Shown: positions 3 through 16,734 of the stretch, piece after piece
Layout of the letters: every line of letters begins with the position of its first letter
How positions within the stretch are numbered: position 1 is the stretch's first letter
NCBI RefSeq assembly: GCF_000353285.1
Contig: NZ_KB731324.1
Location: forward strand, 4,110,577 to 4,174,576
DNA: 64,000 bases
Source of the DNA: Leptolyngbya boryana PCC 6306
Lineage (GTDB): Bacteria; Cyanobacteriota; Cyanobacteriia; Leptolyngbyales; Leptolyngbyaceae
Direction: 5' to 3'
Translations under genes and position numbers: made by a program
The notes under the pieces: generated by a model
What the model was told of the DNA's origin: nothing
Seen by the model: only the letters and a program-made list of their open reading frames with translations
Database searches by the model: none

Positions 3-839
3 TATCTCACAAGTCCAGACAAATACTTTGATCAGGTGTTAGGTCGTGGATCTGGAGAAAATACCAACTTGAAAAGCTTCAACGCCAATTACCTAAAAAT
101 CAAGGATACAGGTTACACCAACCCGAGCGAATCCTTCAATGCCAATGTCGTTCCTGCGGCTTACAATACGATCGTGATGAGCAAACTCATCCTACTGGGT
201 CAAAGCGAAGTGAATCGCCTACTCAGCGATTTGAAGAGTTCCGCGCGCCTTCAGCAACCTAATGTCATGCTCGGCTTTATTAGTACTTTGGATGGGGACA
301 ATCAGTGGTCAAGCGGAATGGTCTTTGCCCAAGATTGCAATGCTTATCGTCAGATCTTTATGAAACAACCTGGTGAAAAAGGCGCTTGTGCTGGCAATGC
401 ATCTGTAAATCCTCCGACTACACCTCAAAAGGTAAGCTTACGAGGAATCGTGCATCTGCAAAATATCGGTGATGTCCCATTTCAGAATGATGCTTTTGCG
501 GGAACAAGAGGTGAATCACGACGCTTAGAAGGCTTCTCTCTGCAAATTTCTGATTCAATCCCGGGTCTGGGCATTGAGTATATGGCGCACATCCAGGATG
601 TAGGAGATACACCTTGGGTAGGAAGTGGTCAATTCGTTGGAACAAGAGGCAAGTCTCAAAGGTTAGAAGGCTTTGCTATTCGGTTAACGGGTTCTGCCGC
701 TGCAAACTATAACGTCAATTACTTCTGCCACTTACAGGATATTGGCGATACCCCTGTGCGATCGAATGGTCAATTTTGTGGCACGCGAGGTGAATCGCGC
801 AGACTTGAGGGTTTACAAGTTTGGATACAAAAGAAGTAA
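3..839 (+). CDS. Partial protein with three C-terminal ChW-like repeats
   Basis: The reading frame is open to the left edge, so the true start lies outside the window; a GTG at 36 is only an internal codon choice. I do not recognise the first ~130 residues. The C-terminal half holds three tandem repeats of about 36 residues (roughly 444-549, 585-690 and 720-830). Each has the pattern H-(L/I)-Q-(N/D)-(I/V)-G-D-x-P, then F-x-G-T-R-G-(E/K)-S, then R-L-E-G. This matches the clostridial hydrophobic (ChW) repeat of secreted proteins, but the usual Trp after Gly is Asp here. ChW repeats are thought to act in surface binding, so an exported or surface protein is likely (inference). A strong hairpin follows at 990-1041. 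Confidence 0.75.
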   Translation, partial: YLTSPDKYFDQVLGRGSGENTNLKSFNANYLKIKDTGYTNPSESFNANVVPAAYNTIVMSKLILLGQSEVNRLLSDLKSSARLQQPNVMLGFISTLDGDNQWSSGMVFAQDCNAYRQIFMKQPGEKGACAGNASVNPPTTPQKVSLRGIVHLQNIGDVPFQNDAFAGTRGESRRLEGFSLQISDSIPGLGIEYMAHIQDVGDTPWVGSGQFVGTRGKSQRLEGFAIRLTGSAAANYNVNYFCHLQDIGDTPVRSNGQFCGTRGESRRLEGLQVWIQKK

Positions 840-989: not shown

Positions 990-1042
990 AAATTGTTGCC
1001 CGACTGCAAATGGTTTTCTACCTGCAATCGGGCAACAATTTT
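990..1042. terminator. Bidirectional terminator-like hairpin between convergent genes
   Basis: Arms at 990-1008 and 1023-1041 pair over 19 positions with one mismatch, around a 14-nt loop. The right arm abuts the stop codon of the minus-strand pseudokinase gene, and short T runs flank both sides. It lies between two converging genes and could end both transcripts. Confidence 0.6.
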
Positions 1043-3317: not shown

Positions 3318-3499
3318 TCGCCCGATACCTACTTAAGAAGAAACATACAATCTCGATCTGAAGGGTAGATGTATGTTGAAAGATCATCAACGATAGCATT
3401 ACGGAGAAAAAGTTTGTTGCAGTTTTGGATTGCTGAAATAAGATTGTCAAAGCACTCGATCGAGAACAATCCGTGCAGTTTTAGCAAATGGAGTCAATC

Positions 3500-3709
3500 A
3501 TGGCAAAGGAACAAGTAGTCAAGCTATTTCGGGCAGCGCAAATGAATCCAAGTTTGCGAGATGAGTTGAATACAGCACCGGATGTCGATACCTTTGTCAA
3601 ACTTGCGGGTGAGCGAGGTTATGAATTTACGACTGAGGAATGGCAAGAAGTCGTGCGCTTTTCAGTAGAAGAATTGAAAAGCCACGTCTCAGAAATTCCT
3701 GGAATCTAG
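3500..3709 (+). CDS. Nif11-domain small protein
   Basis: A 69-residue protein matching the Nif11 family: helical, with LFRAAQMNPSLRDEL near the start and GYEFTTEEW in the second half. In cyanobacteria this domain occurs as a free small protein and as the leader of modified peptides (nitrile-hydratase/Nif11 leader group). This copy ends shortly after the domain (SEIPGI), with no Gly-Gly cleavage site followed by a core peptide. No lanthipeptide synthetase, radical SAM enzyme or peptidase-ABC transporter is nearby, so it looks like a free-standing Nif11 protein of unknown job. I chose the ATG at 3500 over the one at 3488 because GGAG lies 6 nt upstream of it. A strong terminator follows. Confidence 0.8.
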   Translation: MAKEQVVKLFRAAQMNPSLRDELNTAPDVDTFVKLAGERGYEFTTEEWQEVVRFSVEELKSHVSEIPGI

Positions 3710-3727: not shown

Positions 3728-3778
3728 GCTTCTGGTGGAATTTGGAGCGATACAAATTCCACCAGAAGCTAAGTTTTT
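3728..3778. terminator. 17-bp perfect hairpin terminator between convergent genes
   Basis: Arms 3728-3744 and 3753-3769 are perfectly complementary over 17 bp around an 8-nt loop, followed on the plus strand by TAAGTTTTT. It lies between the Nif11 gene and the end of the minus-strand eCIS operon at 3777, so it probably serves both. Confidence 0.8.
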
Positions 3779-6458
3779 ACTGCCCAAACTCAGGCGGAGC
3801 TTCTAAAGGAGAGAGTATATCAGGCACAGAAGGAACGGGAAGCAAGCTATTTCCTCCGTTCTCATCCGACGTACCCGCTTCCGCCTGCTTTGCAGATAAG
3901 GCGGCTGTCGCTGCTGCTGCTGCCACTGCTGCTGGATCTTGTGCATTCGGATCGAACATCTCAACTTGGATCGCTCTGACAACCTGCTGCCCCGTCGGGC
4001 TAGTAACCTGCAATGTGAACATCAGATTTCCGGGTTTAGCTGCCAGTGGCAAAGTCACCGATCCTTCCGGTGGAATACTACCAGGTGTAGGCAGGAGTTC
4101 GACTTTACTGCCCGCGCTCGTATCAATTTTCCAAGCCAGAGACACCATTAAATTCGGCTGACCTAGAACGATCGCAACAACATATTTCGGCTGTGCTTCC
4201 TGTCCATTAAGCTTCAAACTCAGAATTCGAGGGGGCTTCGGTAGAATTTTAACCAATTCACTTTTACGGGGCTGAGAAACTTCTCCCGTCTTAGAAATCG
4301 TCGTTAGTTCAAAAATATAGTCTCCAGGCTTGCCCAATCCCGTTTTAACTGCCTGACAGACTAACTGAGCATCCAGCTTACAAAAAGGTTTCAGCGGCTC
4401 AGGCACACCTTGACTAAAATCAAAAGATTGAGCTGGACTCACCACGGCTCCATCTGCCGTACGTCCAATCCATTGCAGCGTTTGCAATTGAGCAGGATTC
4501 GCGATCGCCCAATTTAACCGCACTTCAGCAGGCTCTAACTTGGGTTGATTTTTAACTTTTGGATCGCTTGGATCAAATTTCGGAACCTCCTGATAGATCG
4601 GCTGTGTCGAAGCAAAACTTACAATCTGAGCCGTCGGCATCGGTTCAATCTTGACAGGAGGCGTTTTCTTACTCTCTCCAGTCGCATTGCGAAACGGTTT
4701 CGGCTCGATCGTCAACTCAAACACATACTCTCCTGCTTTGCGCGCATTTGTGCGAACATTCCGGCAGACTAACCAATCCACTTGCATCGTACAGACTGGT
4801 TTCAGCACATCGGGCAGCCCACGGCTAAAATCATAAACCGTTGGCAGTGTTGCAGGCTTGCCATCAGTAGTTAAGCCGACGAGCTTGAGCGATTGAATTC
4901 GATGCGGTTCACGAATTCGCCAAGTGAGGTGCACGACATCGCTGCTCAGGGCTGCGTACTGTGTATCTTCTGGAGCAAAGTCTACGATTTTTGGAGATTC
5001 GGGAGTGCGGATGAGAAAAAACCAGAGAAGATATGCGATCGCTCCAACCCCTAAGACTCCTGCCAAAATCAGAGGTAAAATTTGCCAAAATGGGCGAGCT
5101 TCCCAAATCACCAGCCCAGGAGCCGTTTCGGGCATGATCGGATGTTTCTGCTCATCCTGAAAGTTGACGTTAAAATTGATGACCTGCCCGCCACCGACCA
5201 AAGGTCTGCGCCACCCTTGTTTAGGCTGGACTCGCAAATCTAACGTTGCCGTACTATGAGCCGCTAGCTCAATGGTTGGAGAGTCTAAAATATAGTTACA
5301 GACTGCTTGCGCGTCAACTTCTTGGGCATGAATCGTAAGCTGACGTTGAGTATTTCCTTGATTCGTTAAGCGAACCTGGAACAATCCATTTTGTTGCTTA
5401 ATGCGATTGCTCAGTGTTCGCAGTTCAGCCTGAAGTGAGTAGACAGGCGTAATCTGCAAGTAGAGCAGATCAACGAATGAAAGATCGGAATAGTTATCAG
5501 ATTTGATTTGCAGCGTTGGAATATAATTGCCTGCGGTTGCAGTCAGCGGCGGAGTCACGATCAGTAGAATTTGATCTTGCTCGCCTGGATTTAGATTGAG
5601 GCAGTCTGATTCTAAAAGAAATCCAGAAAGTTGAACTGCCTGCGGATAAATGACTTTCCACCAGGCTTGCGGCAAGTCATTGCAGACAAATCGAAACCGA
5701 TCGACGCGATCAGAGCGATTTTGCACCATGATTTGCACTTGCAGTGCCGCGCCAGGCTGTACGATCGCAGGCTGAGTTACACTCGTCGCAGGTTGAATTG
5801 CAAAGGTCGGATCACTCGCACTCGCGCTTGCTTGAACTGCTGCTAAGACTTCTAGCTTCTGCTGGCACTGAATCGCTGGAAACTCTGGATAATGCTGAAG
5901 TGCATCAACCACGATCGTATAACTATACGTCGCTGGAAATGCTGCCGCCGGAATGTGAAATTCAAAAGACACATCTCCTGCCTGCTGTGCCCCGAGTGCT
6001 AGAGATTCTTGCGGACTGAGACACCACGCTGCAAGTTCTGGAGCCATCTCTTCTAGAGACACATCAATGATGGCATGATGATCGCCTTGGTTGCGAATGC
6101 TGACATCTAGCATAAAAGAGGTGCCGGGAATGACCGTATCGTGACCCGACGAATTGACGATCGCAACTAATGGCTTAGAGATCGGTAGATTTTGATCAGT
6201 ATGAGCATCCTGATCGCGAATAGGTTGCAAATTAGAACTATACAGAGATTGACCTGCAAAACGGGTTTCTTGCAAAAATCCCTGTGCAATCAGAGCCTCT
6301 AACTCTTGCTGAATTTCAGCCCGCTGCCCTCCCAAAGCTGTGGCAATTTCCGAGAGTGTCGAACCCGAATGACGCATCAGCCAATTCACTAGGCGACGTT
6401 GGTGAATGGGCAACTGCAAGAGTTCTTCTAAGCTAGGATGTTTCGCAGCACTAATCAC
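3777..6458 (-). CDS. Membrane protein with winged-helix N-terminus and Ig-like domains, end of the eCIS operon
   Basis: An 893-residue protein I cannot assign to a named family. Residues 1-65 look like a winged helix (two LxxL-rich helices, then SEIATALGG and LEALIAQGFL). Next come Ig-like beta domains with spaced P-G-x-x-hydrophobic...N-(Q/R)-(G/S)-D motifs, then a single transmembrane helix near residues 455-480 (ILAGVLGVGAIAYLLWFF). At least three repeats follow, each with a W-x-I-x-x-P-x-x-(I/L)-(Q)-(S/T)-L pattern. The tail contains an Ala-rich run (AAVAAAAATAA). The start overlaps the stop of the preceding WD40 gene by 8 nt, so translation is probably coupled. The membrane helix with large beta domains on both sides suggests a membrane anchor or docking part for the contractile injection system (inference). 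A winged helix at the start of such a protein is odd and may mediate protein contacts rather than DNA binding. Confidence 0.8.
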   Translation of the reverse strand: MISAAKHPSLEELLQLPIHQRRLVNWLMRHSGSTLSEIATALGGQRAEIQQELEALIAQGFLQETRFAGQSLYSSNLQPIRDQDAHTDQNLPISKPLVAIVNSSGHDTVIPGTSFMLDVSIRNQGDHHAIIDVSLEEMAPELAAWCLSPQESLALGAQQAGDVSFEFHIPAAAFPATYSYTIVVDALQHYPEFPAIQCQQKLEVLAAVQASASASDPTFAIQPATSVTQPAIVQPGAALQVQIMVQNRSDRVDRFRFVCNDLPQAWWKVIYPQAVQLSGFLLESDCLNLNPGEQDQILLIVTPPLTATAGNYIPTLQIKSDNYSDLSFVDLLYLQITPVYSLQAELRTLSNRIKQQNGLFQVRLTNQGNTQRQLTIHAQEVDAQAVCNYILDSPTIELAAHSTATLDLRVQPKQGWRRPLVGGGQVINFNVNFQDEQKHPIMPETAPGLVIWEARPFWQILPLILAGVLGVGAIAYLLWFFLIRTPESPKIVDFAPEDTQYAALSSDVVHLTWRIREPHRIQSLKLVGLTTDGKPATLPTVYDFSRGLPDVLKPVCTMQVDWLVCRNVRTNARKAGEYVFELTIEPKPFRNATGESKKTPPVKIEPMPTAQIVSFASTQPIYQEVPKFDPSDPKVKNQPKLEPAEVRLNWAIANPAQLQTLQWIGRTADGAVVSPAQSFDFSQGVPEPLKPFCKLDAQLVCQAVKTGLGKPGDYIFELTTISKTGEVSQPRKSELVKILPKPPRILSLKLNGQEAQPKYVVAIVLGQPNLMVSLAWKIDTSAGSKVELLPTPGSIPPEGSVTLPLAAKPGNLMFTLQVTSPTGQQVVRAIQVEMFDPNAQDPAAVAAAAATAALSAKQAEAGTSDENGGNSLLPVPSVPDILSPLEAPPEFGQ

Positions 6459-8589
6459 GATCGCACTCCAAATTCTTAAATCGGTTCACTTGATCCATCT
6501 GCACCTGAGTATCTGCACCTCCACTCAGCACCAACACCTGATCTTTCACAATCGCCACATCCACACTCTCAATCCCGGCGGTCGATCGCAACGACTTTTG
6601 GATGACTTTGCCAGAGTCAGGATGTTCAGCCCGATGACCATTCGGCGAAAGTGCCCATAGCTTTGCTGTGCCATCTGCACCAGCACTCGCAAGATAGCAA
6701 CCATTGGGACTCAAGGCGACACTGCGGACTGGTTGCCCACCATGCCCATCTGACCACTGTTCGATGACTTGACAGGGCTGCTGCGAATCAAGGCATTCCT
6801 TCAGGTTCCAAAGCGTAATCGTTCCTTGATTATCGGCAGATGCCATGAGATTAGGTTTTGCTTTCGCGCTTGCTAGGCTTTGAATATATTGGTTTTGCCC
6901 CCCTGCAACCGGGTAGCGAATGGGCTTGTGTTGTTTACGGCTCCAATTCCAAAGTTCTAAGCGATTGAATCGTCCCGCGATCGCTAATTGCTGGTCTCCG
7001 ACTAAAGCTAAAGCAGAAACCGCAAAATTGACCGTTAAGGTTTGTTCGGGCTTGGTATTCAGACTCGCACTACTCAGTTTCCATTGTGCAACGGCTCCAC
7101 TGCCATGACCACTGAATAGGTATTGAGAATCGTTGCTAAATCTCAGATCAAAAACGCGATCGCCCGCTCCTAGCCTAAAGATACTATCGGGCGCAGAATT
7201 CTGTTTGAGCAGATTGATCAGTTGAATCTCCCCGTTTTCTAGACCTGCGGCAATGCGATTATTGTCGATCGGTTGATAGCGGATCACTCGAACTGCCTGG
7301 CTGGTTTTTGAAACAATGCCCATTTCTTGGGACACAAGCGGATTAAAGAATCCGGCAGTCAACCAGCGCCTGAGCGATTGATCAGTCGAGCCTGAAATCG
7401 CCTGTTCTGCAGTGCCATTAAACTGAACTGAGGCAACGGCTCCTGAATGCCCACAGTGCGGATTGTGGGGATTGTAACAAGAGGAAATCCAGAGCGGAAC
7501 AGGGATTGTAAAAAATGCGATCGCAGAAAGCCACCATACCGAAATCATCGGAGCAACTTTCAACTCCAAAGCTTGCAATTCGTTTTGAGTTCTAATCCGA
7601 GCGTCTGAGCACACTGCTCGAACAGATAGCATTCCAGATTGAGTTCGTCCGATCCACGATCGACGTTTTTTAACTATCAGTTGAAACTGCTGAGTTTCAT
7701 AGGGATGAAGTTCAGCTAGCTTTGGAAGAACTTCAATCTCATCAGAAGTAACAAAGCCAGAATCTACTTCAATATGGGCATCTTGAGACACATTCGTTGC
7801 ATTTTCTAGCTCTAGCCGATAAGTCGCAGTTCCAGTCCGTTGGAAAAATTCGAGGAAGTGTAAGGGAATCTTTTGCTGACGAACTGTACAGCGAAAATCA
7901 GCCGCACCTGTCGGTAAAATCTCAAGCGTGCCTGAATCGCTGCTACTCACACCATTTTCGATCTCCGCTTCGACCTGGAACGGATACACCTGACTTTGAG
8001 CAGTTTCGACCGGAGGCTGACAGAGAAAGATAGATTCTAATGTCCGTCCAGGCTGGACTTGAATGGTTTGCTCCACGCCATGAGCAAACCATTCTGGAGC
8101 TAATCCGTGCAAGCGCAGCGTCGCACGGACAGGCACCTGCCCAGGATTATCCGTGCGGACTAAAAGCTCAATTAAATCACCCGAATAAGTTTGAATCTTG
8201 TTTAAAAGCAGATCAACCACCAAGGGGACAGCTTCAGAACCTTGTTCTAGAGTCAAGCGTATTGATTGTTTCGTCTCGGTTGCCAGATCGAGCGAGAAAA
8301 CCCGAACTGTAAGATTCACTTGTCCAACAAATCCTGGAATCGGATTTTTGAGAATTTTGACTTGGAAAACTGTGCGATCGCCGGGTGGTGTTTTACTACA
8401 AACCTCTGGCGACAACCGATACCAGTGATGATCGACTTCATCCACCCCTGCTGCTAGTATTTCCAGTTGAAAAGTCGCAAACTGGGAACTATGATTCAAC
8501 ACACTGACTTCAAAAGCAACTGGATCACCACCCGGCTTAAAGGCAATTTCTTTCGTGGAAACCTGAGTTTTAATCAGTTCTTTTAACAT
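6451..8589 (-). CDS. Ig-like/TM/WD40 membrane protein of the eCIS operon
   Basis: A 712-residue protein. The first ~345 residues are Ig-like beta domains (FKPGGDPVAFEVSVLNHSS at the start resembles the other Ig-like modules of this operon). A hydrophobic segment follows near residues 348-370 (SAIAFFTIPVPLWISS). The C-terminal half is a WD40 propeller: repeats with GH-x-G-x-V-x-S-V-x-F, SGSTDQSLRRW, LASAGADGTAKLWAL and others. WD40 propellers are protein-binding platforms. Large WD40 proteins are known near eCIS genes in cyanobacteria, but the mid-chain membrane helix is unusual. It begins 17 nt after the heme-sensor gene and overlaps the next gene by 8 nt, so it is firmly in the operon. A role in tying the baseplate to a membrane is plausible but unproven. 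Confidence 0.8.
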   Translation of the reverse strand: MLKELIKTQVSTKEIAFKPGGDPVAFEVSVLNHSSQFATFQLEILAAGVDEVDHHWYRLSPEVCSKTPPGDRTVFQVKILKNPIPGFVGQVNLTVRVFSLDLATETKQSIRLTLEQGSEAVPLVVDLLLNKIQTYSGDLIELLVRTDNPGQVPVRATLRLHGLAPEWFAHGVEQTIQVQPGRTLESIFLCQPPVETAQSQVYPFQVEAEIENGVSSSDSGTLEILPTGAADFRCTVRQQKIPLHFLEFFQRTGTATYRLELENATNVSQDAHIEVDSGFVTSDEIEVLPKLAELHPYETQQFQLIVKKRRSWIGRTQSGMLSVRAVCSDARIRTQNELQALELKVAPMISVWWLSAIAFFTIPVPLWISSCYNPHNPHCGHSGAVASVQFNGTAEQAISGSTDQSLRRWLTAGFFNPLVSQEMGIVSKTSQAVRVIRYQPIDNNRIAAGLENGEIQLINLLKQNSAPDSIFRLGAGDRVFDLRFSNDSQYLFSGHGSGAVAQWKLSSASLNTKPEQTLTVNFAVSALALVGDQQLAIAGRFNRLELWNWSRKQHKPIRYPVAGGQNQYIQSLASAKAKPNLMASADNQGTITLWNLKECLDSQQPCQVIEQWSDGHGGQPVRSVALSPNGCYLASAGADGTAKLWALSPNGHRAEHPDSGKVIQKSLRSTAGIESVDVAIVKDQVLVLSGGADTQVQMDQVNRFKNLECDRD

Positions 8590-8606
8590 GAGTTAGGGCG
8601 GATAGG

Positions 8607-9668
8607 TTAGGACTGAGAATGGGTTGAATTGACCTTGAGCGCAGACCGAATCACTTTTGCTTTTGCCAGCAATGCCTGAACTTGTGATTGAGTTCCGACG
8701 GTTTCATCTGGCGATCGAGCATTGAGAACTTCCTGATGGAGCATTTCGAGCTGCTGTTTTAGAGAAGTTTCTCGCGCCCAGATCGACGTGGCTAAATGTC
8801 GAAATGAGCGGGCTAATTGCCCCATTTCATCCCTACGCTGAATAAAACGATTGAGTTTCTGTAAATCTTCGTCTTTGATATCAGCATTTTCCTGATTGAG
8901 TGCATTCGCAATTTTGGCGATCGGATGCAACGGCTGAATCACTGATCGTGTCAGCAGCAGATTCAACACCAAAATGATCAGCGCAAAAATCCCAACAAAA
9001 GCACCAAACGCGATCAAAAATTGGTGCTGATAACTTTGCACAATGCGATCGCTCGGCATGTAGAGGGTCTGCGCTGCGACGACATCGTTCAATTTCCAGT
9101 TAAATCCACGCTCATTCCCGTAAGTTTTGAGGTGACTTTTCGGAGCAGCCTCAGGTGTACTATGACACCGCAAGCAACTTGGATCAGTCATTCTCAGAGG
9201 TCGTGAGACATAGAATAGCTGCTTGCCTGCGATGGTTTGAAACCCAAACAGTTTTGGAATGTCTTGCTGCTGGCGAAACCGCTCAACTAATGAGGTTTCA
9301 AATTCATTCGCGAGATCGCGAAGATTCGTCGGATTCAAAGCTGCTTCTTTGTAGAAAAAGTCCTCGTAACCCATCTTCTGTCGCAATCTCTCAAACACTT
9401 CGCGGGCTGAATAAGCCGGAACCGATTCTGCGACAAATTCCTCTTTTGTTTCAATTTTCTCAGCCAGAAGGGGCTGGATTTTCTGCGAGGTGTAATCCCG
9501 CACCGAGCTAATAGTCTCCATTAAGGTCATGGCTCGATCGACAACTTGCTGAGAGGCACGGTCTTGAACTTGCCCTGAGATCAATAAGGCACTTAAGCCA
9601 GTACTTGCCAGAAACAGAACACTCAGCAACAGCGTAAATTTAAATTGAAGTCGGAATTTATTAAGCAT
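8607..9668 (-). CDS. Membrane heme-sensor protein (DUF3365/Tll0287-like) with HAMP domain
   Basis: A 353-residue protein. A transmembrane helix near residues 8-30 is followed by a sensor region of about 185 residues with a single CxxCH motif (CLRCH, near residue 166), which marks covalent c-type heme. A second helix near 218-240 and a HAMP linker (RSVIQPLHPIAKIANALN) follow, then a short coiled-coil. This is the layout of Tll0287-like (DUF3365) sensors, believed to sense redox state or ligands. No kinase or methyl-accepting domain follows, so output must pass through another protein. The ATG at 9668 overlaps the stop of the upstream gene by 8 nt, and homology starts there, so I reject the longer frame to 9749. 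Its place inside an eCIS baseplate operon is the striking point. Confidence 0.85.
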   Translation of the reverse strand: MLNKFRLQFKFTLLLSVLFLASTGLSALLISGQVQDRASQQVVDRAMTLMETISSVRDYTSQKIQPLLAEKIETKEEFVAESVPAYSAREVFERLRQKMGYEDFFYKEAALNPTNLRDLANEFETSLVERFRQQQDIPKLFGFQTIAGKQLFYVSRPLRMTDPSCLRCHSTPEAAPKSHLKTYGNERGFNWKLNDVVAAQTLYMPSDRIVQSYQHQFLIAFGAFVGIFALIILVLNLLLTRSVIQPLHPIAKIANALNQENADIKDEDLQKLNRFIQRRDEMGQLARSFRHLATSIWARETSLKQQLEMLHQEVLNARSPDETVGTQSQVQALLAKAKVIRSALKVNSTHSQS

Positions 9669-10998
9669 AAGTTTGCACGAATTGAGAAGATTGCTCTGGA
9701 GCGGCGGTACTTGCCTGTAATGTAGTTCGCTGCTTCCTTTGCCAAGCAAAATGCAACACGTTAATTCCTAATTCTTGCGAAGTTCGCACGGCTTCCCTGG
9801 AAAATGGCACTTCGCCATCCCAAGCCACACTTAAGTCACCTAGTAGATGAATCAATCCTTGTGAATTTAACAGCGTAATCGGCTGTTGTCTTAGCGTCGG
9901 AAACTGAGAAAATAAGAAAGGTTCTGTCTTCAACGGATGACGGGATGAAAGCAATTCTACCTGACTGATTGCAATCCCCAACTGATGGCAGTGAAAGCTT
10001 AGTTCTGCGTGCTGCTGCTGTAAATATTCCTGAAGTTGCTCTGTAACAGCAGACAGTTCGCATTGTACTGCTAGATAGGTTTCCTCAGATTCAGAAGTTT
10101 CCAGCAAAGCATCCGTGAGTTGTTGCCGAACCGTCTGTAATTCGGCGATCGCTGATCCTTTCAACGATTCCGCTACTATGATTGTTGTGCCTTGCGCGAT
10201 CGCGCTTAGCAATCCACGCATCGAAGCCTCATCTAACGCAAGAAATTGAGCTTTTGTCAGATACAACAGATGGTATTTTGTCACAGAGGAATTGAGGGGA
10301 AAGGTCAGATGTTCAACCCGTCCAGCCATTTTGGGATAAAGTGCGATCGCGCTTTGCAGTAAGGCTCGAAACTGCGCGGTTGCGGAAGCAGAAAAGCATC
10401 CCACCTCGACCCATTCTGTTTGCCGGACGTGCGCCGCAGGACGGAAGCGCAAGTCAAGTTCATTCAACCCAGGAAACATCACATTTTCTGCTGGTTTGAG
10501 TTGATGACGACCCGGAGCTAAGCAAATTCGACAGAGTTCAATCTCATCGACTTGCGGCAGAGTCACTGTTTCATCAATCCGAAACGTTTCTTGAATCGTT
10601 TCTTGTTCCGGTAGCGCTTGTAATTTATCAGGATCGACATAGCGTAACATCAGAAAGACTTCAACAGGTTGCTTAGCAGAAGCCTCTGAAGCAATACGAA
10701 ACTCGATCGGCGCAGGTACAACAATCGGATTGCCAAAATTGTCGATCGCTAGCCCCGGCTGAATTTGTACCCAACGACCATCGCGGTATTGTGACGAGAT
10801 CGTCTCCGGCGCACGAATCACAGAAACTCCGAGTCCCCAAACAATCCCAGGACTATGCACAGATTGATGGAGGAGATTTTGCCGCTGACGATGATAGGAA
10901 TGCGCCTGCTGCCAGCGTTTTGCCGTGATTAACAATCCATCTGAAATTTGCAGCCGCTCAAAGGGTTGTAGCGATCGTTGAAGAAAAGGCATCGTCAT
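9661..10998 (-). CDS. eCIS-operon protein, weakly DUF4159-like
   Basis: About 445 residues, no signal peptide or membrane helix. The N-terminus (MTMPFLQRSLQPFERLQISDG) and the following ~140 residues read like a phage-type baseplate or lysozyme-associated module with a compact beta domain (GLAIDNFGNPIVVP). The second half has the pattern of DUF4159-like domains (LLYLTKAQFLAL..., a Gly-x-x-x-x-x-x-A turn, and a final GINVLHFAW), a fold related to class I glutamine amidotransferase-like proteins; this assignment is weak. I chose ATG 10998, which has GGAG 8 nt upstream, over 11061. The start overlaps the tail-protein-I gene by 41 nt and the stop overlaps the heme-sensor start, so it is part of the operon. 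Function unknown. Confidence 0.75.
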   Translation of the reverse strand: MTMPFLQRSLQPFERLQISDGLLITAKRWQQAHSYHRQRQNLLHQSVHSPGIVWGLGVSVIRAPETISSQYRDGRWVQIQPGLAIDNFGNPIVVPAPIEFRIASEASAKQPVEVFLMLRYVDPDKLQALPEQETIQETFRIDETVTLPQVDEIELCRICLAPGRHQLKPAENVMFPGLNELDLRFRPAAHVRQTEWVEVGCFSASATAQFRALLQSAIALYPKMAGRVEHLTFPLNSSVTKYHLLYLTKAQFLALDEASMRGLLSAIAQGTTIIVAESLKGSAIAELQTVRQQLTDALLETSESEETYLAVQCELSAVTEQLQEYLQQQHAELSFHCHQLGIAISQVELLSSRHPLKTEPFLFSQFPTLRQQPITLLNSQGLIHLLGDLSVAWDGEVPFSREAVRTSQELGINVLHFAWQRKQRTTLQASTAAPEQSSQFVQTYA

Positions 10999-11959
10999 GG
11001 GTCTGGCTCCGGGGTTCAATCCAAAAATCGTAGGTGCAAAACGCAGGTTTTTCTTGCTCAATCACCCGTCTTACTAGCGCTTCATCGATCGGAAAATCTG
11101 GGTCTGGACGCAATTTGACACAGAAATGAAACGGACGACCTCCTCCAAGAATGGCATCTTCGGTTAAATGCGTTGTACCCAACACAAATCCCCGCTGATA
11201 AAGCTCAAAGATACTAATGTGCTTTGCCTCTTCAGCGAGATGCTCATCGAGTGGTAAGCCTGTAGCGAGGTGTAAATAAAACCTTAATCCTCGTCTTGTG
11301 CCTCGCCATCGGTAGATCTGCATTGCATTCCGAATCAATCGCCGCTGCTGATCTAAGCTCATCTGAGATTCTGCTGACCAAGCAACCCAGTGCGAGAGAA
11401 AAGGCAGCAGAGCTTTTGGAGCCGTCAGCGGATCGAGGTAAGCCCAGAGCGCATCTAGGCTCTGTACCGCAGGTTCAAAGGTTTCTTCAAAGATTTTGAG
11501 AAAGCGCCCCACAAAATCGATTTCTCGATAAATCGCAGGCAAAAAATCAAGGTACAAACTTCGAGGACGCAGAAAAAGCTGAAATTCTGCGGTTTCAATC
11601 TCTGAAGCATGAACGCAGATTCTACCTTGGTAATTGATGTTGAGATGAGGTCGATCGCGCAATGCTTCAGCAGCTTCAAAAAAGTCCGCAGGCACTCGAA
11701 AATAAAGCACGGCATCCATCGTTTGATGCGGCAAGATCTCTGAGCCTTCCATTCCTACCCAGCACCAGTCTTGCGGAAAATTCCCTTCCACCTGTAGAGA
11801 GACTTGCATCGGCTCTGAGCCAGTATTTCTGACTTGTACAACTAGCTCACTCGGCTCACCTGGGCGAAGGAGCAACTGAGGAATTGAGCCTTGCGATCGC
11901 GCCGAATCTGGCGTTTGCATGGGAGTGAGATTGACACTGAGAGTTGAACTAGAACGCAT
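10958..11959 (-). CDS. Baseplate tail protein I-like (TIGR02242 type) with N-terminal Ig-like domain
   Basis: A 333-residue protein. From about residue 130 it matches the phage tail-protein-I-like family of contractile injection systems: LPAIYREIDFVGRFLKIFEE, then LDALWAYLDPLTAPK, LPFLSHWVAW and YRWRGTRRGLRFYL. In such systems this protein forms part of the baseplate wedge beside the J-like protein. The first ~115 residues are an Ig-like domain (LLRPGEPSELVVQVRNTGSE) of the same type as those in the two large membrane proteins of this operon, an uncommon addition. It starts 14 nt after the J-like gene and overlaps the next gene, as expected for a co-expressed baseplate set. Confidence 0.9.
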   Translation of the reverse strand: MRSSSTLSVNLTPMQTPDSARSQGSIPQLLLRPGEPSELVVQVRNTGSEPMQVSLQVEGNFPQDWCWVGMEGSEILPHQTMDAVLYFRVPADFFEAAEALRDRPHLNINYQGRICVHASEIETAEFQLFLRPRSLYLDFLPAIYREIDFVGRFLKIFEETFEPAVQSLDALWAYLDPLTAPKALLPFLSHWVAWSAESQMSLDQQRRLIRNAMQIYRWRGTRRGLRFYLHLATGLPLDEHLAEEAKHISIFELYQRGFVLGTTHLTEDAILGGGRPFHFCVKLRPDPDFPIDEALVRRVIEQEKPAFCTYDFWIEPRSQTHDDAFSSTIATTL

Positions 11960-11972
11960 CTAACATCCTCCC

Positions 11973-14174
11973 TCAATTCATAAAGCTAATCGCATGGCTC
12001 GATCGCAGCCGAGGATCTGCCCAAGAGCAAATCAATCCTGTCTTGCCTGGATCAATCATGCCGTCTTGCGCTAGGGTGCGTATCCAGCCTGAACCTTGCC
12101 GCCGCAGTTCAAACAACAAGACTGCTCCCAAATACCGCACCCCCACAATCGATTGGAACAAACTCACAATGTCCGAAACATAAACCGGACAGCCAAACTC
12201 CCACCCGCATCGATCCACGCCACCGATGAGCGGGTTCAAAAATCGATATAGTTCAACTTGTAATCGTCGAAGAATCGTTTGCTGTGCTTGGGTATTTTGA
12301 TATTCAGGCAGTAATCCAACTTCGACTTGCACAGACACGCCTACATATTCTGGCTCTTGCAGTCTCACTTGCACACCAAGCAATCGTCGCTCATCCAAAT
12401 AGCTGAGGATTTGCGTTTTCAAAGGTAGAGTCAGACTGAATTGGCTCGGTGCGATGCCGATCGCTGCGTCAATTCCATCTAGGTTTGCTTTAGGAACAAT
12501 CAGCAAATCGACGACTCCAGGCGTTGTGTCTTGAGTCGAGCGAATTGGACATAAAGCGCGCGCGACTGATCCTTGTCCTGCCTGCACGGCTAGCGTTTCA
12601 AAATCTTCTGGAGTCACGGCGCGATCGCGCGTTCTCAAGATCTGCGGCACTCGGATCACTGCATCTTCTAGCGATTCTGCATCGGCTCCATGATGCGCAG
12701 AGCGATGATTGATCACGCGATCGATATAAGGCACAGCAGATTTCGCAATTTGAATTGTTCCGGCTTGTACATTGCCTTTGCGTCCGCCTCCAGTTCGGTA
12801 GGCTGCCATCCGAATTGTTGCCCCGCGTGCGGGAACCGCTCCATATTGCCGCTCCATTTGCTGACGAGTTTCTGAGTAACTTGGGGGTGCTGAGTTGCCA
12901 AGTGTAAGCTGATTGCGGCTGCGGACATTCGTTTGGGTTTTGAGTTGTCCAGGTTCTCGAATCAAAGGACCGAACTGAATCTGTCCGGTCAAAGACTCGA
13001 TCGTATAGTGCAAATCCTCTGAACCAGAATCTGCAAAATCATTCACTTCTCGCCAAATTTGAGGCAATCCTCCTGGCGGAGTTACGATTAAGTGCTCGCC
13101 TTCTCGACGCGGCAAAATCGAGCCACTTTGAAGCTGAAAAGTCTGCCCAGGCGTGCCGTTGCTTTCTCCGAGTAATTCATCTCGAATCAGCGTACATTGA
13201 TGAACCTCGATCGTCCCCCCAATCGTTCGAGCCGACATTCCTAGCAGTTCTGGGGCGCGTGCATATCCAGACTGTCCCATTTGCGGTTGAGTATATACAC
13301 ACCGCAACCAGCGCCCCTGATATGCGCCAAAATACGACACTGGAAAAACCAGCGGTAAATGCAGCGTGACATCGGCTTCTCGAATGGCATTCCGAACCGC
13401 TTGCCCTGCTTCTCGAAAGCTAAATCCATACGTTGCGTCATCGTCTTCTTGCAGCAAAATGGGCTGCCAAGATGAACCATTCCAAGCTTCCCAATGGCGC
13501 GGAGGTTGGTTGGGATTAATCCCAACTGAGCTAGCGACTTCACCTTTGAGCGTCAACGCTAGCACATTGCCTTCAATCTCAGAGCGAGGATCAAACACAA
13601 TGTAAAAGCAATTTCCAGGCTGAGGACGCTCGTTGAAAATAAACTGTGCTTGTCCTTCCCACTGCCCATCTTCTTCCGTCCAAAAGTTCGTTAAGCGATC
13701 GCGTAACATGACGGGCGCAGCATCGGCAGTCTCAGAAGTCAGAAAATGCGTAATCCGAGGCGTACCAATCGTTAAGGGTCGATCGGTACTAAATACGATC
13801 GCGTCTTGGGATTCAGTCCGAACCGTTGCAACTTCTGTACCCGGTGAAATTTGATACGTGCTTGGCAAAGCAGCCGTCAGGTAAAAAGTAACTTCAGTCT
13901 GAGCAGGAGTAGGAGGTAAAAGACGAATGCCTAGTAACTCTAAGAATGCAACATAATTACGGCGTGGAACTTGATTGAACCGAACCAGCATCTGGTCAGT
14001 TAACCAGGAGAAAAGCTCAATCATCGTAATGCCAGGATCGCCCGGATTAAAATTTGTCCATTCGGGACAGTACCGAGGAATCCTGAGAATACATTCATTC
14101 ACCAGATCTTCAAAGGTGCGATCGTCCAGATCTGATTTGGGTAACTTAGGCAGAAACTCAAATTCCATATCCAT
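11973..14174 (-). CDS. Baseplate J-like protein (TIGR02243 type)
   Basis: A 733-residue protein matching the putative baseplate assembly family of contractile injection systems: an N-terminus with FEDLVNECILRIPRYCPEW, NPGDPGITMIELFSWL and LVRFNQVPRRNYVAFLELLG, then a central beta-rich part and a C-terminal region with the typical TPEDFETLA and later GVQVRLQEPEYVGVSVQVEV segments. J-like proteins build the wedge framework of the baseplate. Length is normal for the family. The start could be 14174 or 14168 (MDM...). The gene lies 104 nt downstream of gp25 and 13 nt upstream of tail protein I, the usual order of eCIS loci. Confidence 0.95.
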   Translation of the reverse strand: MDMEFEFLPKLPKSDLDDRTFEDLVNECILRIPRYCPEWTNFNPGDPGITMIELFSWLTDQMLVRFNQVPRRNYVAFLELLGIRLLPPTPAQTEVTFYLTAALPSTYQISPGTEVATVRTESQDAIVFSTDRPLTIGTPRITHFLTSETADAAPVMLRDRLTNFWTEEDGQWEGQAQFIFNERPQPGNCFYIVFDPRSEIEGNVLALTLKGEVASSVGINPNQPPRHWEAWNGSSWQPILLQEDDDATYGFSFREAGQAVRNAIREADVTLHLPLVFPVSYFGAYQGRWLRCVYTQPQMGQSGYARAPELLGMSARTIGGTIEVHQCTLIRDELLGESNGTPGQTFQLQSGSILPRREGEHLIVTPPGGLPQIWREVNDFADSGSEDLHYTIESLTGQIQFGPLIREPGQLKTQTNVRSRNQLTLGNSAPPSYSETRQQMERQYGAVPARGATIRMAAYRTGGGRKGNVQAGTIQIAKSAVPYIDRVINHRSAHHGADAESLEDAVIRVPQILRTRDRAVTPEDFETLAVQAGQGSVARALCPIRSTQDTTPGVVDLLIVPKANLDGIDAAIGIAPSQFSLTLPLKTQILSYLDERRLLGVQVRLQEPEYVGVSVQVEVGLLPEYQNTQAQQTILRRLQVELYRFLNPLIGGVDRCGWEFGCPVYVSDIVSLFQSIVGVRYLGAVLLFELRRQGSGWIRTLAQDGMIDPGKTGLICSWADPRLRSSHAISFMN

Positions 14175-14278
14175 AAAATTGCGATCGCAAATCAGAGTAA
14201 ATAGCGATGAGCTAAGTCAATTTAACACTGAAACAAATAAGTGAATCACCGGATTTAGCGATGCCGTAATTTTACGGA

Positions 14279-14674
14279 TTAGCTTGCAGGCAGCAGGTAA
14301 AATGGATAGACCAGACTGCGGCGATCGTGCGTTTCTTTCGGGTGATATTCCACGAGAATGTCTATTCTTCCCCGAATCGGATCTGGCTCAGTGCGAATGC
14401 TATCCACGACAATCCGCGGCTCCCATTTTTCCAATGCTTCTTGCACATAGACTCGGGTGAGCAACAGTGTTTGAGTGTTCAGTGGTGCAAAAGTTAACTC
14501 CGACAATCGCGACCCAAAATCAGGACGATACACTCTCTCTCCCAGTTCTGTGCCTAAGATAATTCGGATCGATTCTTCAATATTTTGATAGGTTGCACTC
14601 AGATGTAACCCACCTTGAACGCTCACCTGTAGCGGGAACGCCCAACCTTGACCCAAATGGTTTGCAGAAATCAT
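14279..14674 (-). CDS. Baseplate gp25/gpW-like protein
   Basis: A 131-residue protein of the GPW/gp25 family: GWAFPLQVS near the start, SIRIILGTELGERVYRPDFGSRL in the centre (the hallmark G-E-R-x-x-x-P-x-F-G-S segment), then LLLTRVYVQEALEKWEPRI and a final beta hairpin. In T4, gp25 joins the baseplate wedges and starts sheath assembly; eCIS homologues do the same. It is the first gene of the minus-strand operon and faces the AAA ATPase gene across a palindrome-rich promoter region. Confidence 0.95.
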   Translation of the reverse strand: MISANHLGQGWAFPLQVSVQGGLHLSATYQNIEESIRIILGTELGERVYRPDFGSRLSELTFAPLNTQTLLLTRVYVQEALEKWEPRIVVDSIRTEPDPIRGRIDILVEYHPKETHDRRSLVYPFYLLPAS

Positions 14675-14802
14675 AACCTGATGAATATTTTTGAGATGAT
14701 TATTTCACTGCGATCGTGAAACTACTTCCGTAGCCCTACGGTTTCATCCGTTTTGGAATTTAGAGATAAGAGCAGGTGTGTGCGTTTGCAAATCTCTCTA
14801 CG
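14675..14802. promoter_or_regulatory. Divergent promoter region of the eCIS module with nested palindromes
   Basis: This 128-nt gap separates the divergent gp25 and ATPase genes. It holds TTTCAC (14703-14708) and GTGAAA (14716-14721) around a 7-nt spacer, and CCGTAG-CC-CTACGG at 14728-14741, itself framed by TGAAAC (14717-14722) and GTTTCA (14741-14746). The symmetry suits a dimeric repressor or a hairpin that controls both directions. The regulator is unknown. Confidence 0.5.
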
Positions 14803-16734
14803 ATGACTTCTCTAACTTCCTGGGCTGAACTCAATCAACAGTATTTGCAAACCGCGATCGCGCATGTTCGGCAGCAGCTTAAACAAGATCCGACATTGTT
14901 TGAACCTGTCGCATTCTCTCCAGAAGCCCCACCTGCGCTTGTGACACTCTGCCGAATGTTCAGACTGTCTGAATATGAGCGCGATCTCTTAGTCCTCTGT
15001 GCAGGCATGGAGTTCGATGGCGAATGGGCAACGCTCTGTGCCACTGTTCAAAACGATGCACAAAAGCCTTATCCAACATTGAGCTTAGCACTAGCTACGC
15101 TCGCAGATCCGCATTGGAGTGCTTTAGCACCAGATTCACCTTTGCGGTACTGGCATTTAATTGAGATTGGAGCAGGTAATGCGCTCACTCAAAGCCCCAT
15201 CCGAATTGATGAGCGCATTCTCCATTATTTAATCGGGCTACCTCAACAAGATGAAAGATTAGCAGGATGTATTACACCAGTCGCTTCTGATGCGATCGCG
15301 CTTGTAGAATCACACCAACGGATTGTCAAACAGAGCTATCAATCCTGGATACAATTTGCGCAGAAACAATCCTTAAAGCAACTTCCGGTCATTCAACTCT
15401 GTGGACAAGATCGCATCAGCTTACAAGCGATCGCACTTGCGATTGCGGCGCGATCTCAGCTCAATCTTTTTGAGATCGCGATTGATACCCTTCCGACCGA
15501 CATCGCGCAATTTCATCTCTTGATGCGTCTATGTGAACGAGAATATCTGCTCAGTCAAGCTGCATTTTGGATCGACTGCACCTTAGAATCCGATCTCAAT
15601 TCTACTCAAGCAAGTCTGCTCTCTCGTTTGATTGATCAACTCGCTGCCCCCGTCATCGTGGCGACTTCTGATCGTCGTCGTCAACGTCAGCGTCGTTACC
15701 TTAGCTTTGATGTGGATCTACCCTCTCCTGCTGAACAGCGATCGCTGTGGCATCAGCATTTACCAAATCTCACAAATCAACTAGCTCCTTTGGTTTCGCA
15801 GTTTAATCTCTCTCCTGATGCGATCGAGACAGCTTGTCTGCAAGTTCAATCTCTGCCCATCACCTCGAGTGATGAGTTAGCAAGCAACCTTTGGCAAACT
15901 TGCCGAGAACAAGCCCGCCCGCGTTTAGATGAACTAGCTCAGCGCATTTCAAGTTCGATGGGTTGGGAAGATCTAGTACTTCCCGACAAAGAACAGCAAA
16001 CCTTGCACGAGTTAATTGCTCATGTGAAACAGCGATCGCGTGTTTATGAAACTTGGGGATTCGGCAGTAAAAGTGCGCGCGGCTTAGGAATTACTGCCTT
16101 GTTTTCTGGAGCCAGTGGAACAGGTAAAACAACAGCCGCAGAAGTCATTGCTCACGAATTGCAGCTTGATCTCTATCGAATTGACCTCAGTACGATTGTG
16201 AGTAAATACATTGGCGAAACTGAGAAAAACTTGCGCCGTATTTTTGATGCGGCTGAAGCAGGGGGCGTAGTTTTGCTGTTTGATGAGGCAGATTCATTAT
16301 TTGGCAAGCGGAGTGAAGTCAAAGATAGCCGCGATCGCTATGCGAACTTAGAAGTTAGCTACCTTTTGCAACGCATGGAATCATATCGCGGACTAGCAAT
16401 TTTGACGACGAACTTGAAAGCCTCGATCGATCCTGCTTTCTTACGGCGCATTCGATTTGTAGTTCCGTTTTCTTTTCCAGATCAGCAACAGCGAACAGAA
16501 ATTTGGCGCAGAGTTTTTCCTAAAGATACACCGACTGAAAATCTAGATTTCGACAAGCTCGCCCGCTTAGGAGTCGCAGGTGGAAACATTCGCAATATTG
16601 CCGTTAATGCAGCCTTTATTGCAGCAGATGCAGATGAGGCAGTACAAATGAAGCACATTCTGGCAGCGGCTCGCAACGAATATGTCAAACTAGAGCGACC
16701 TTTAACCGATGCAGAAACACGGGGATGGGTGTGA
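14803..16734 (+). CDS. AAA+ ATPase of the eCIS type
   Basis: About 643 residues from the ATG at 14803; a GTG at 14776 would add nine. The N-terminal ~400 residues are helical with a degenerate ATPase-like part (DRRRQRQRRYLSFDVDLPSP). A complete AAA+ domain follows: Walker A GASGTGKTT near residue 435, Walker B VVLLFDEADSLFG near 489, then the sensor and arginine-finger regions (LTTNLKASIDPAFLRRIRF) and a C-terminal helical lid. This is the layout of the Afp15-like ATPase coded with nearly all eCIS loci, thought to help assembly or recycling of the particle. It is transcribed away from the baseplate operon. Confidence 0.9.
   Translation: MTSLTSWAELNQQYLQTAIAHVRQQLKQDPTLFEPVAFSPEAPPALVTLCRMFRLSEYERDLLVLCAGMEFDGEWATLCATVQNDAQKPYPTLSLALATLADPHWSALAPDSPLRYWHLIEIGAGNALTQSPIRIDERILHYLIGLPQQDERLAGCITPVASDAIALVESHQRIVKQSYQSWIQFAQKQSLKQLPVIQLCGQDRISLQAIALAIAARSQLNLFEIAIDTLPTDIAQFHLLMRLCEREYLLSQAAFWIDCTLESDLNSTQASLLSRLIDQLAAPVIVATSDRRRQRQRRYLSFDVDLPSPAEQRSLWHQHLPNLTNQLAPLVSQFNLSPDAIETACLQVQSLPITSSDELASNLWQTCREQARPRLDELAQRISSSMGWEDLVLPDKEQQTLHELIAHVKQRSRVYETWGFGSKSARGLGITALFSGASGTGKTTAAEVIAHELQLDLYRIDLSTIVSKYIGETEKNLRRIFDAAEAGGVVLLFDEADSLFGKRSEVKDSRDRYANLEVSYLLQRMESYRGLAILTTNLKASIDPAFLRRIRFVVPFSFPDQQQRTEIWRRVFPKDTPTENLDFDKLARLGVAGGNIRNIAVNAAFIAADADEAVQMKHILAAARNEYVKLERPLTDAETRGWV

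What the first reader, a model, noticed from the sequence alone, without database searches (positions are those of the whole stretch)
3777..14674. A baseplate-only contractile injection operon joined to a heme sensor and membrane Ig/WD40 proteins
Seven minus-strand genes run with overlaps or short gaps: gp25, J-like, tail I-like, DUF4159-like, CxxCH-HAMP, Ig-TM-WD40 and wHTH-Ig-TM-Ig. The first three are core eCIS baseplate genes; the last four are not standard structural parts. Membrane-anchored cyanobacterial injection systems are known, so these may be the membrane attachment and a firing switch that responds to redox or heme state. Sheath, tube and spike genes must lie elsewhere.
Basis: partly seen in the sequence, partly recalled or inferred. 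Interest (0 to 1): 0.85.

Follow-up and report, generated by a model that had tools for sequence, protein, structure and literature searches.

The report
Orphan injection baseplate with built-in receptors
A cyanobacterium carries the base and the membrane-sensor half of a phage-tail-like injection machine whose spring and needle genes were not found in its genome, and relatives that still have those genes often keep the same sensors beside the base, which suggests how such machines may be told when to fire.

Summary
The seven-gene minus-strand operon is real: gp25, TIGR02243 J, tail I, a CIS13/DUF4159 protein, a c-heme Cache-HAMP receptor, an Ig-TM-WD40 protein and a wHTH-Ig-TM-Ig protein. An AAA+ ATPase, a pseudokinase-TM-binding-protein gene and a Nif11 gene flank it. 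J groups with type IId (Streptomyces-like, cytoplasmic) systems, not with the Anabaena thylakoid system. The extra genes are conserved: the Ig-TM-WD40 gene follows the baseplate in 31 of 60 loci with room, and a receptor lies between in 13 of these. The receptors' outer domain varies: dCache in 14 and c-heme Cache in 4 of 18; 12 have a cyclic-nucleotide domain. The claim that sheath and tube lie elsewhere fails: no sheath, tube, spike or CIS_tube was found in this 99.99%-complete genome, though the same searches find them in relatives. Of 37 genomes with this kind of J, 36 have a sheath gene. Best reading: membrane-docking and signal-input module of a IId injection system, orphaned here by loss of the contractile half. 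Docking and sensing are inferred.

The parts
14279..14674 (-). G: gp25-like baseplate wedge protein (Cis9 equivalent)
   Evidence: PF04965 E 3.6e-19; 58-75% identical to gp25 of the type-A loci in which one was matched
11973..14174 (-). F: baseplate J-like protein (Cis11 equivalent), 733 aa
   Evidence: TIGR02243 E 1.1e-184 full length; best PDB match 9gtp_1K E 1.1e-110, an S. coelicolor CIS baseplate entry
10958..11959 (-). E: tail I / Cis12-like wedge protein with an Ig-like N-terminal stretch
   Evidence: TIGR02242 E 3.6e-38, NF053768 E 3.8e-16; profile positions 43-109 weakly match Ig stretches of an A protein and of a Deinococcus CIS kinase (E 1.5e-4 and 2.5e-4 in a 13-protein set)
9661..10998 (-). 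D: Cis13-like protein, fibre/receptor-binding-like N-terminal half plus DUF4159/GATase-like C-terminal half (ORF opens at 11061; conserved part starts near 10998)
   Evidence: NF053767 E 3.4e-15; homologue PF13709 E 1.7e-16; AlphaFold pLDDT 83.8; fold matches
8607..9668 (-). C: two-TM receptor, c-type heme Cache (Tll0287-like, CLRCH) plus HAMP; no cyclic-nucleotide domain, unlike the three Tll0287-type relatives (ORF opens at 9749; conserved ATG at 9668)
   Evidence: PF11845 E 8.5e-43, HAMP E 6.7e-6; two hydrophobic segments; alignment A6
6451..8589 (-). B: Ig-like domains, one TM, WD40 propeller
   Evidence: PF00400 E 5.6e-19; hydrophobic segment within 345-366; A and B profiles homologous through the TM, hhalign 98.1%
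3777..6458 (-). A: winged helix, Ig-like domains, one TM (460-478), further Ig-like domains
   Evidence: AlphaFold pLDDT 79.9, pTM 0.35; Foldseek matches are Ig-repeat proteins
1041..3317 (-). P: pseudokinase, one TM, periplasmic-binding-protein-like domain; CIS-linked
   Evidence: PF12849 E 2.4e-11; HGN in place of HRD in 17 of 17 aligned rows, two of them the same gene; orthologues covering both halves in 15 of 15 type-A-J genomes and 1 of 27 others of the family
3488..3709 (+). Nif11-domain small protein, divergent from P; recurs beside P or gp25
   Evidence: PF07862 E 2.4e-15
14776..16734 (+). H: AAA+ ATPase with a winged-helix domain, of the kind found in CIS loci
   Evidence: PF00004 E 8e-26, PF22977 E 9.9e-20; 54-57% identical to ATPases beside cap and sheath genes in four relatives

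Best explanation
This is the baseplate and membrane/signal-input half of a type IId (cytoplasmic, Streptomyces-like) contractile injection system of cyanobacteria. Proposed working in relatives that have the whole machine: gp25, J and tail I form the wedge; D sits at the tail-fibre position; the Ig-TM proteins A and B (and P) sit in a membrane and dock the baseplate, perhaps Ig to Ig with tail I; receptor C (c-heme Cache or dCache outside, HAMP and mostly a cyclic-nucleotide domain inside) passes a signal, for the heme form probably nitric oxide, to the docked baseplate and licenses sheath contraction. In the window's genome the sheath, tube, tube-adaptor and spike genes, and any full-length cap gene, are missing, so this copy cannot inject; it is an orphan, most simply left by one deletion beside the AAA+ gene. 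Shown: gene identities, conservation, receptor diversity, absence of the contractile half from this assembly. Inferred: docking, topology, signal, firing control, the deletion.
For: J closest to S. coelicolor CIS and grouped with Streptomyces and Deinococcus J (97/93). D in 11, B in 10 and A in 8 of 14 family relatives' baseplate loci (A of G028 from its named copy); B in 31 and A in 26 of 60 wider loci. Receptor between D and B in 6 of the 10 family loci with B and 13 of 31 wider ones (the two sets overlap). P with the type-A J: 15 of 15 against 1 of 27. D predicted fold: Foldseek hits to TssK (E 1.3e-4) and the Anabaena CIS baseplate (E 1.9e-3); phage/virus fibre or baseplate proteins at Z 7-8 and GATase-like proteins up to Z 15.1. 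A and B share their Ig-TM part (98.1%), and share it with proteins of S. clavuligerus and Deinococcus CIS loci (96-98%). No sheath, tube, spike or CIS_tube in G000 while the same searches ring in relatives. Same-genus sheath as query: nothing at E up to 10 (no control in that call).
Against: No experiment or complex prediction links A, B, C or P to the baseplate. 29 of 60 loci with room have neither B nor A beside D, so the module is dispensable or sits elsewhere. 17 of the 31 loci with B have no gene in the receptor slot, and one has an unidentified 297-aa ORF. HAMP in 18 of 18 receptors is partly built in, since they were picked with profiles of HAMP proteins. The ORFs in the window are all open, which may mean recent loss or a remaining function. 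The window's receptor lacks the cyclic-nucleotide domain. A lost replicon cannot be excluded: related systems occur on plasmids.
Confidence: 0.58

Rival explanations
1. A and B are cargo or effectors of the injection system, of the Sco4256 type (Ig-like domain, TM, variable C-terminal domain), not anchors or receptors.
For: PMC10020575 section 11 (read whole): Sco4256 is found in purified particles, has a domain like pilus chaperones (an Ig-type fold, recalled), a TM and, in about a third of homologues, a toxin- or lectin-like end, with homologues in IId clusters of several filamentous cyanobacteria. A and B profiles match a Streptomyces clavuligerus protein of that build (97.6% and 96.1%).
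Against: In the window the C-terminal ends are a WD40 propeller or more Ig-like domains with no toxin-like match. A and B sit behind the fibre-position gene, in part of the loci with a receptor in between, not beside the tube. They persist here without a tube.
Confidence: 0.18
2. The machine is whole in nature; the contractile genes are on a replicon missing from this assembly or culture, or are too diverged to be found.
For: Baseplate and sheath loci are often far apart in relatives (about 127 kb in G015; over 4 Mb apart on C1 in G018), and such systems occur on plasmids of Kovacikia, Brasilonema and Pseudanabaena.
Against: Genome 99.99% complete in 5 contigs. The retained parts are contiguous and the missing parts are the contractile ones. 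Sheath, tube, spike and CIS_tube searches all empty while positive in relatives.
Confidence: 0.17
3. The baseplate in this genome has been kept as a stand-alone membrane signalling complex without any tail.
For: All parts open and contiguous; receptor and pseudokinase parts kept; contractile parts missing.
Against: Only 1 of 37 genomes with this kind of J has no sheath gene, so no repeated sheathless class was seen; the receptor has no cyclic-nucleotide domain here; a same-genus relative has its J gene broken by a transposase-like insertion, so decay does occur.
Confidence: 0.08
4. A thylakoid-anchored system of the Anabaena tCIS kind.
For: Cyanobacterial host; baseplate linked to membrane proteins; D matches the CIS13 family by its N-terminus and the Anabaena baseplate 7b5h is among Foldseek's hits for D. 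In 38 of 66 D relatives the hydropathy scan flagged at least one segment.
Against: The window's D has no flagged hydrophobic segment (the scan is crude and also flags one in J), J is 733 aa and closest to Streptomyces, tail I is 333 aa against a tCIS Cis12 with an extra region at 610-1,100 (PMC8894136 passages).
Confidence: 0.08

Closest known systems
Type IId cytoplasmic CIS of Streptomyces coelicolor (CIS-Sc; PDB 9GTP; PMC12237407, PMC10020575)
   Same: J protein homologous (E 1.1e-110); gp25-J-tail I order (compared on a S. clavuligerus plasmid); AAA+ ATPase; an Ig-TM protein in the locus
   Different: Streptomyces has CisA behind the baseplate genes; here a Cis13/DUF4159 protein, a receptor, Ig-TM-WD40 and wHTH-Ig-TM-Ig. 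D, A, B and P profiles show no match to the S. clavuligerus protein in the CisA position (hhalign 5.5% or less). Contractile half missing in the window's genome.
Sco4256-type Ig-TM proteins of IId systems (PMC10020575)
   Same: Ig-like part plus TM, profile match to a S. clavuligerus protein of that build (97.6%, 96.1%)
   Different: C-terminal ends are WD40 or Ig; two homologous genes in tandem; proposed there as toxin cargo
Thylakoid-anchored CIS of Anabaena (tCIS; PDB 7B5H; PMC8894136)
   Same: cyanobacterial CIS; a Cis13-family protein at the fibre position
   Different: anchoring there is by a TM in Cis13 and an extension of Cis12; neither is present in the window's proteins
sCache_heme (Tll0287/DUF3365) receptors (PMC12889525)
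   Same: CxxCH Cache domain between two TMs, HAMP behind
   Different: reported there with kinases, MCPs or c-di-GMP enzymes; here encoded inside a CIS operon, with a cyclic-nucleotide domain in the three Tll0287-type relatives and none in the window
T6SS TssK
   Same: Foldseek E 1.3e-4 for the D model; TssK is recalled as the link between T6SS baseplate and membrane complex
   Different: low TM-scores (0.2), not among the 50 VIA-align rows; D has a DUF4159/GATase-like domain

Membership tests
Type IId CIS | J/Cis11 nearest to the Streptomyces/Deinococcus lineage | tested here: met
   9gtp E 1.1e-110; tree 97/93 with Streptomyces and Deinococcus, apart from type-B cyanobacterial J; the program warns of long branches
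Type IId CIS | sheath, tube, spike and cap in the same genome | tested here: not met
   PF04984, PF06841, NF033848, PF19266: 0 in G000, positive in relatives; cap PF14065 one stray 142-147 aa frame without CIS neighbours
Type IId CIS | AAA+ ATPase of the CIS kind | tested here: met
   window 14776-16734; 54-57% identical to ATPases beside cap and sheath genes
Thylakoid-anchored CIS | TM helix in Cis13 | tested here: not met
   no hydrophobic segment in the window's D by a Kyte-Doolittle scan; in relatives mixed: 28 of 66 D proteins without, 38 with one or more flagged segments
Thylakoid-anchored CIS | large Cis12 extension and Cis11 extra domains | tested here: not met
   tail I 333 aa, J 733 aa; features as described in PMC8894136 passages
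Thylakoid-anchored CIS | location in thylakoids | not testable with these tools
   needs imaging
sCache_heme receptor with HAMP | PF11845 domain with CxxCH, two TMs, HAMP | tested here: met
sCache_heme receptor with HAMP | no axial Cys, NO binding | tested here: inconclusive
   only the two CxxCH cysteines occur between the TMs of the window's C; the NO-binding example of PMC12889525 also lacks the axial Cys; binding itself not testable here
CisA | homology to the Streptomyces CisA-position protein | tested here: not met
   hhalign of D, A, B and P profiles against L166:22628-24382: 0.1-5.5%; CisA of S. coelicolor itself not on hand, and a single sequence on one side limits sensitivity
Sco4256-type Ig-TM protein | Ig-like part and TM homologous to IId Ig-TM proteins | tested here: inconclusive
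   97.6% and 96.1% to a S. clavuligerus protein of the same build, but Sco4256 itself was not on hand
T6SS baseplate/membrane complex | TssK-like adaptor | tested here: inconclusive
   Foldseek E 1.3e-4, TM 0.2; not in the 50 rows
T6SS baseplate/membrane complex | TssJLM membrane complex | not tested
   no search made

The most novel reading that the evidence does not exclude
In this lineage a transmembrane receptor (c-heme/NO or small-molecule Cache outside, HAMP and cyclic-nucleotide domain inside) is a working part of the injection machine and gates firing through membrane-docked Ig proteins; and in the window's species the docked baseplate has survived without a tail as a pure signalling complex.
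Probability: 0.08. Interest if true: 0.9.

Novelty: new variant of a known kind. Interest (0 to 1): 0.62.

Why it matters
How cytoplasmic injection systems sense stress, reach a membrane and fire is open: in Streptomyces one membrane protein, CisA, is known to be needed (PMC12237407 passages), and Roseiflexus is reported to lack close homologues of it (PMC12998442 passages). Here a receptor with a recognisable input domain is encoded inside the baseplate operon in a good part of the cyanobacterial loci (13 of the 31 with B), and the input domain is exchanged while HAMP stays. That turns the trigger question into direct tests: add the ligand (NO for the heme form), remove the receptor, and watch firing. 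The orphan copy offers a natural separation of the docking half from the contractile half.

Tried and rejected
P as a CisA homologue: rejected; architecture alike (cytoplasmic part, TM, binding-protein-like end) but no profile match to the S. clavuligerus protein in the CisA position (5.5%), whose end is a discoidin-like glycan-binding domain. Truncation of P in the window: rejected, since the N-terminus varies among orthologues. Stray Pvc16_N match at G000 C1:2816363 as a remnant of the sheath locus: rejected; in the 40 kb taken around it no ORF matched the relatives' CIS genes, only two weak matches to unidentified flanking ORFs. TssK family for D: left open. PDB matches by sequence: D alone one chance-like hit, C none, the D profile only weak hits, among them IFT52 and 4i66, which the fold comparison later supported. 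Foldseek matches of A are Ig-repeat proteins of many kinds. The tube search of the own genome rang in no control genome, so the family-wide search (29 of 42) serves as its control. The paper search: 'contractile injection system' with 'WD40' and 'cyanobacteria' (1 paper), with 'HAMP domain' (1), with 'DUF4159' (0), with 'cyclic nucleotide' and 'cyanobacteria' (1); a search on eCIS, kinase, membrane protein and cyanobacteria gave 2 reviews or genome papers. By listed titles and abstract starts none describes these genes; those papers were not opened.

Rows dropped or choices made before counts: two receptor-like ORFs outside the slot (L090:5578-6498, L106:2-1516; listed) were left out of the 18. 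Of the 80 loci, 14 without D and 6 with under 3 kb behind D were left out of the 60. Matches to P of the kinase half or the binding half only were not counted as orthologues (cut-off set after seeing the list); the counted ones include two with in-frame stops (G015, G009). G030, whose J is only 27% identical over part of its length, was not counted among the 15 type-A-J genomes although its TIGR02243 score (E 2.0e-81) is near that of G031; counting it would make P 15 of 16. The 24 include G097, a lower-scoring match in two pieces. PAAR was not searched. A tube-like match in G013 (E 3.3e-7) was not followed.
Full report
WHAT IS THERE. Family searches name them: gp25 (PF04965 E 3.6e-19), J (TIGR02243 E 1.1e-184 over all 659 positions), tail I (TIGR02242 E 3.6e-38), a protein whose N-terminus matches the CIS13 family (NF053767 E 3.4e-15, below that model's cut-off), a Tll0287-like (PF11845 E 8.5e-43) plus HAMP protein, an Ig-TM-WD40 protein and a wHTH-Ig-TM-Ig protein. 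Below the proteins are called G, F, E, D, C, B and A in that order (gp25 first). From the conserved starts, C begins at 9668, overlapping the stop of D by 8 nt, and D near 10998 (and my reading).

THE UNIT IS LARGER. Divergent from gp25 lies an AAA+ ATPase (14776-16734), 54-57% identical to ATPases that sit beside cap and sheath genes in four relatives. Downstream of A lies P (1041-3317): a kinase-like part with HGN where active kinases have HRD in 17 of 17 aligned rows (two rows are one gene; the HRD rule is recalled), one TM and a binding-protein domain (PF12849 E 2.4e-11). In the 42 genomes of the family, P orthologues that cover both halves occur in 15 of 15 genomes with this kind of J and in 1 of 27 others (Fisher p 1.6e-10, which ignores shared ancestry and a cut-off chosen after seeing the list; two of the 15 have in-frame stops). 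In 9 of the 14 relatives P lies 1 to 15 kb from a sheath, tube, cap, spike or baseplate gene on one contig (from the positions); in the other five (G021, G032, G035, G040, G041) it lies on a contig without a listed match to those genes. Between A and P is a Nif11-domain gene.

WHICH LINEAGE. The J protein's best solved relative is 9gtp (E 1.1e-110), the Streptomyces coelicolor CIS baseplate (entry list in PMC12237407). In a tree of 22 J proteins the cyanobacterial ones of this kind (15 rows, 99/99) join Streptomyces clavuligerus and Deinococcus (97/93), apart from four long cyanobacterial J proteins of another type (the program warns of long branches, and the four rows are cut at locus ends). 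PMC12998442 (section 23 read) places Streptomyces and Roseiflexus systems in IId; PMC10020575 (section 11 read) mentions IId systems in filamentous cyanobacteria. So type IId in cyanobacteria is known in print; a description of C, B, A and P as a module was not found in the searches named under Tried and rejected.

CONSERVATION OF THE EXTRA GENES. Among the 14 family relatives with this kind of J, D follows in 11, B in 10 and A in 8 (for G028 A was seen in the named copy L087). Six of the 10 loci with B have a receptor gene between D and B. In a scan of one genome for each of 84,980 species, 356 stretches encoded a relative of J; the best 80 were kept, all cyanobacterial by title. Of these, 66 have D; 60 have at least 3 kb behind it; B follows in 31, A also in 26, neither in 29; of the 31, 13 have a receptor in the slot, one an unidentified 297-aa ORF, 17 nothing. 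In Kovacikia and Brasilonema plasmids A lies away from J on the same replicon, so 'not adjacent' is not 'absent'.

THE RECEPTOR SLOT. I took 18 receptor proteins from the slot, picked with profiles built from HAMP-containing members. All 18 have HAMP, 14 a dCache domain, 4 a Tll0287-like domain, 12 a cyclic-nucleotide-binding domain. The four Tll0287-type ones have CxxCH. PMC12889525 (preprint; abstract, passages and section 12 read) argues that Tll0287-like domains are c-heme Cache domains; of two proteins tested there, the HAMP-linked one, which lacks the axial cysteine, released NO slowly (koff 6.25e-4 per second) and formed no stable oxygen complex, while the stand-alone one bound NO weakly. 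The window's C likewise has only the two CxxCH cysteines between its TMs. The three Tll0287-type relatives carry a cyclic-nucleotide domain behind HAMP; the window's C ends 17 bases before B and has none.

THE Ig-TM PROTEINS. A and B are homologous through Ig part and TM (hhalign 98.1%). Both match a Streptomyces clavuligerus plasmid-borne CIS-locus protein with Ig-Ig-TM build (97.6% and 96.1%) and an FHA/kinase protein in a Deinococcus CIS locus (98.0% and 97.7%), but not the S. clavuligerus protein in the CisA position (0.1% and 0.3%). The first resembles what PMC10020575 calls Sco4256, a proposed toxin cargo; that is the main rival reading. Tail I has an Ig-like N-terminal stretch that weakly matches the same domains, which suggests, without proving, Ig-to-Ig docking. 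Charges around the TM of B weakly favour its Ig part in the cytoplasm and its WD40 part outside; for A they are undecided (positive-inside rule recalled). The hydropathy scan is crude: it flags a segment in J and, in relatives, up to four in B and at least one in 38 of 66 D proteins.

D. The model (pLDDT 83.8) has a first half that resembles fibre or receptor-binding proteins (cyanophage A-1(L) fibre Z 7.8, Mtd Z 7.4, HFTV1 baseplate Z 7.1; the tool warns that Z under 8 may mean only a common arrangement) and a GATase-like second half (4i66 Z 15.1). Foldseek's best hits were TssK (E 1.3e-4) and, after it, the Anabaena CIS baseplate (E 1.9e-3), with low TM-scores; TssK is not among the 50 VIA rows.

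THE MISSING HALF. In the window's genome (7.26 Mb, 5 contigs, 99.99% complete) no sheath, tube, VgrG-type spike or CIS_tube protein was found. A same-genus sheath as query finds nothing at E up to 10 (without a control). A cap-domain match is a lone 142-147 aa frame without CIS neighbours. The same searches ring in relatives: sheath 29 of 42, tube 29 of 42, spike 5 of the 7 genomes searched, CIS_tube 5 of 7 (G007, searched as a positive control, was also empty for spike and CIS_tube). Of 15 family genomes with this kind of J, 14 have a sheath gene. Of 386 cyanobacterial genomes at least 95% complete, 24 have it and 23 of them a sheath gene. The two sets share G000 and G032, so 36 of 37. A sheath gene in a relative may belong to another system in that genome. 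Hence no class of sheathless systems was seen; this genome is an exception. In G035 the order is baseplate operon, AAA+, cap, sheath, tubes, so one deletion beside the AAA+ gene would give the window's arrangement; this is inference. In a same-genus relative (G018) the J gene is interrupted by a transposase-like insertion, so these systems do decay.

VERDICT. Literature seen: PMC8894136 outline and passages; PMC12237407 passages; PMC12998442 outline, section 23, passages; PMC10020575 passages and section 11; PMC10066040 passages; PMC12889525 outline with abstract, passages, section 12; all other papers as search listings only.

Noticed in passing
window 3488-3709 (+); L168:2623-2832, L118:1282-1491, L116:1559-1792, L123:1756-1980, L065:7364-7783, L068:1069-1278, L072:3737-3985, L077:3748-3969, L045:12195-12551, L125:1676-1924, L128:259-468: A Nif11-domain small protein with a shared C-terminal end recurs beside P (mostly divergent) or gp25: found in 10 of 110 sources searched (one place counted twice) and 5 of 20 (two of them repeats); no role is known to me.
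   Followed up: partly
L053:8498-11530 (same-genus relative G018): J gene of a relative interrupted by a transposase-like insertion between its first and second part.
   Followed up: partly
L167:23116-27957 (Deinococcus taeanensis plasmid): A Ser/Thr kinase with FHA and Ig-like domains homologous to those of A and B is encoded directly behind tail I in a Deinococcus cluster: kinase input may be a wider theme of this lineage.
   Followed up: no
L168 and L169 (Pseudanabaena sp. ABRG5-3 plasmid ABRG53d): One plasmid carries P, tube, spike, PAAR, gp25, J, tail I, D, a Cache receptor and B in one run, some kilobases from a nif gene cluster, and A, an AAA ATPase and DUF4157 proteins elsewhere on it.
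   Followed up: no
G010:C23:14370-16241: The only P orthologue covering both halves in a family genome without this kind of J.
   Followed up: no
G000:C1:2816363-2816617: Short Pvc16_N-like frame (E 1.2e-6) without injection-system neighbours.
   Followed up: yes
window 36-839 (+): Protein with three ChW (hydrophobic W) repeats, PF07538 E 5.8e-33, at the left edge of the window.
   Followed up: no
window 19011-19862 (+): DUF2887 plus DUF4351 protein, about 2 kb beyond the AAA+ gene; whether it bears on the loss of the contractile half was not tested.
   Followed up: no
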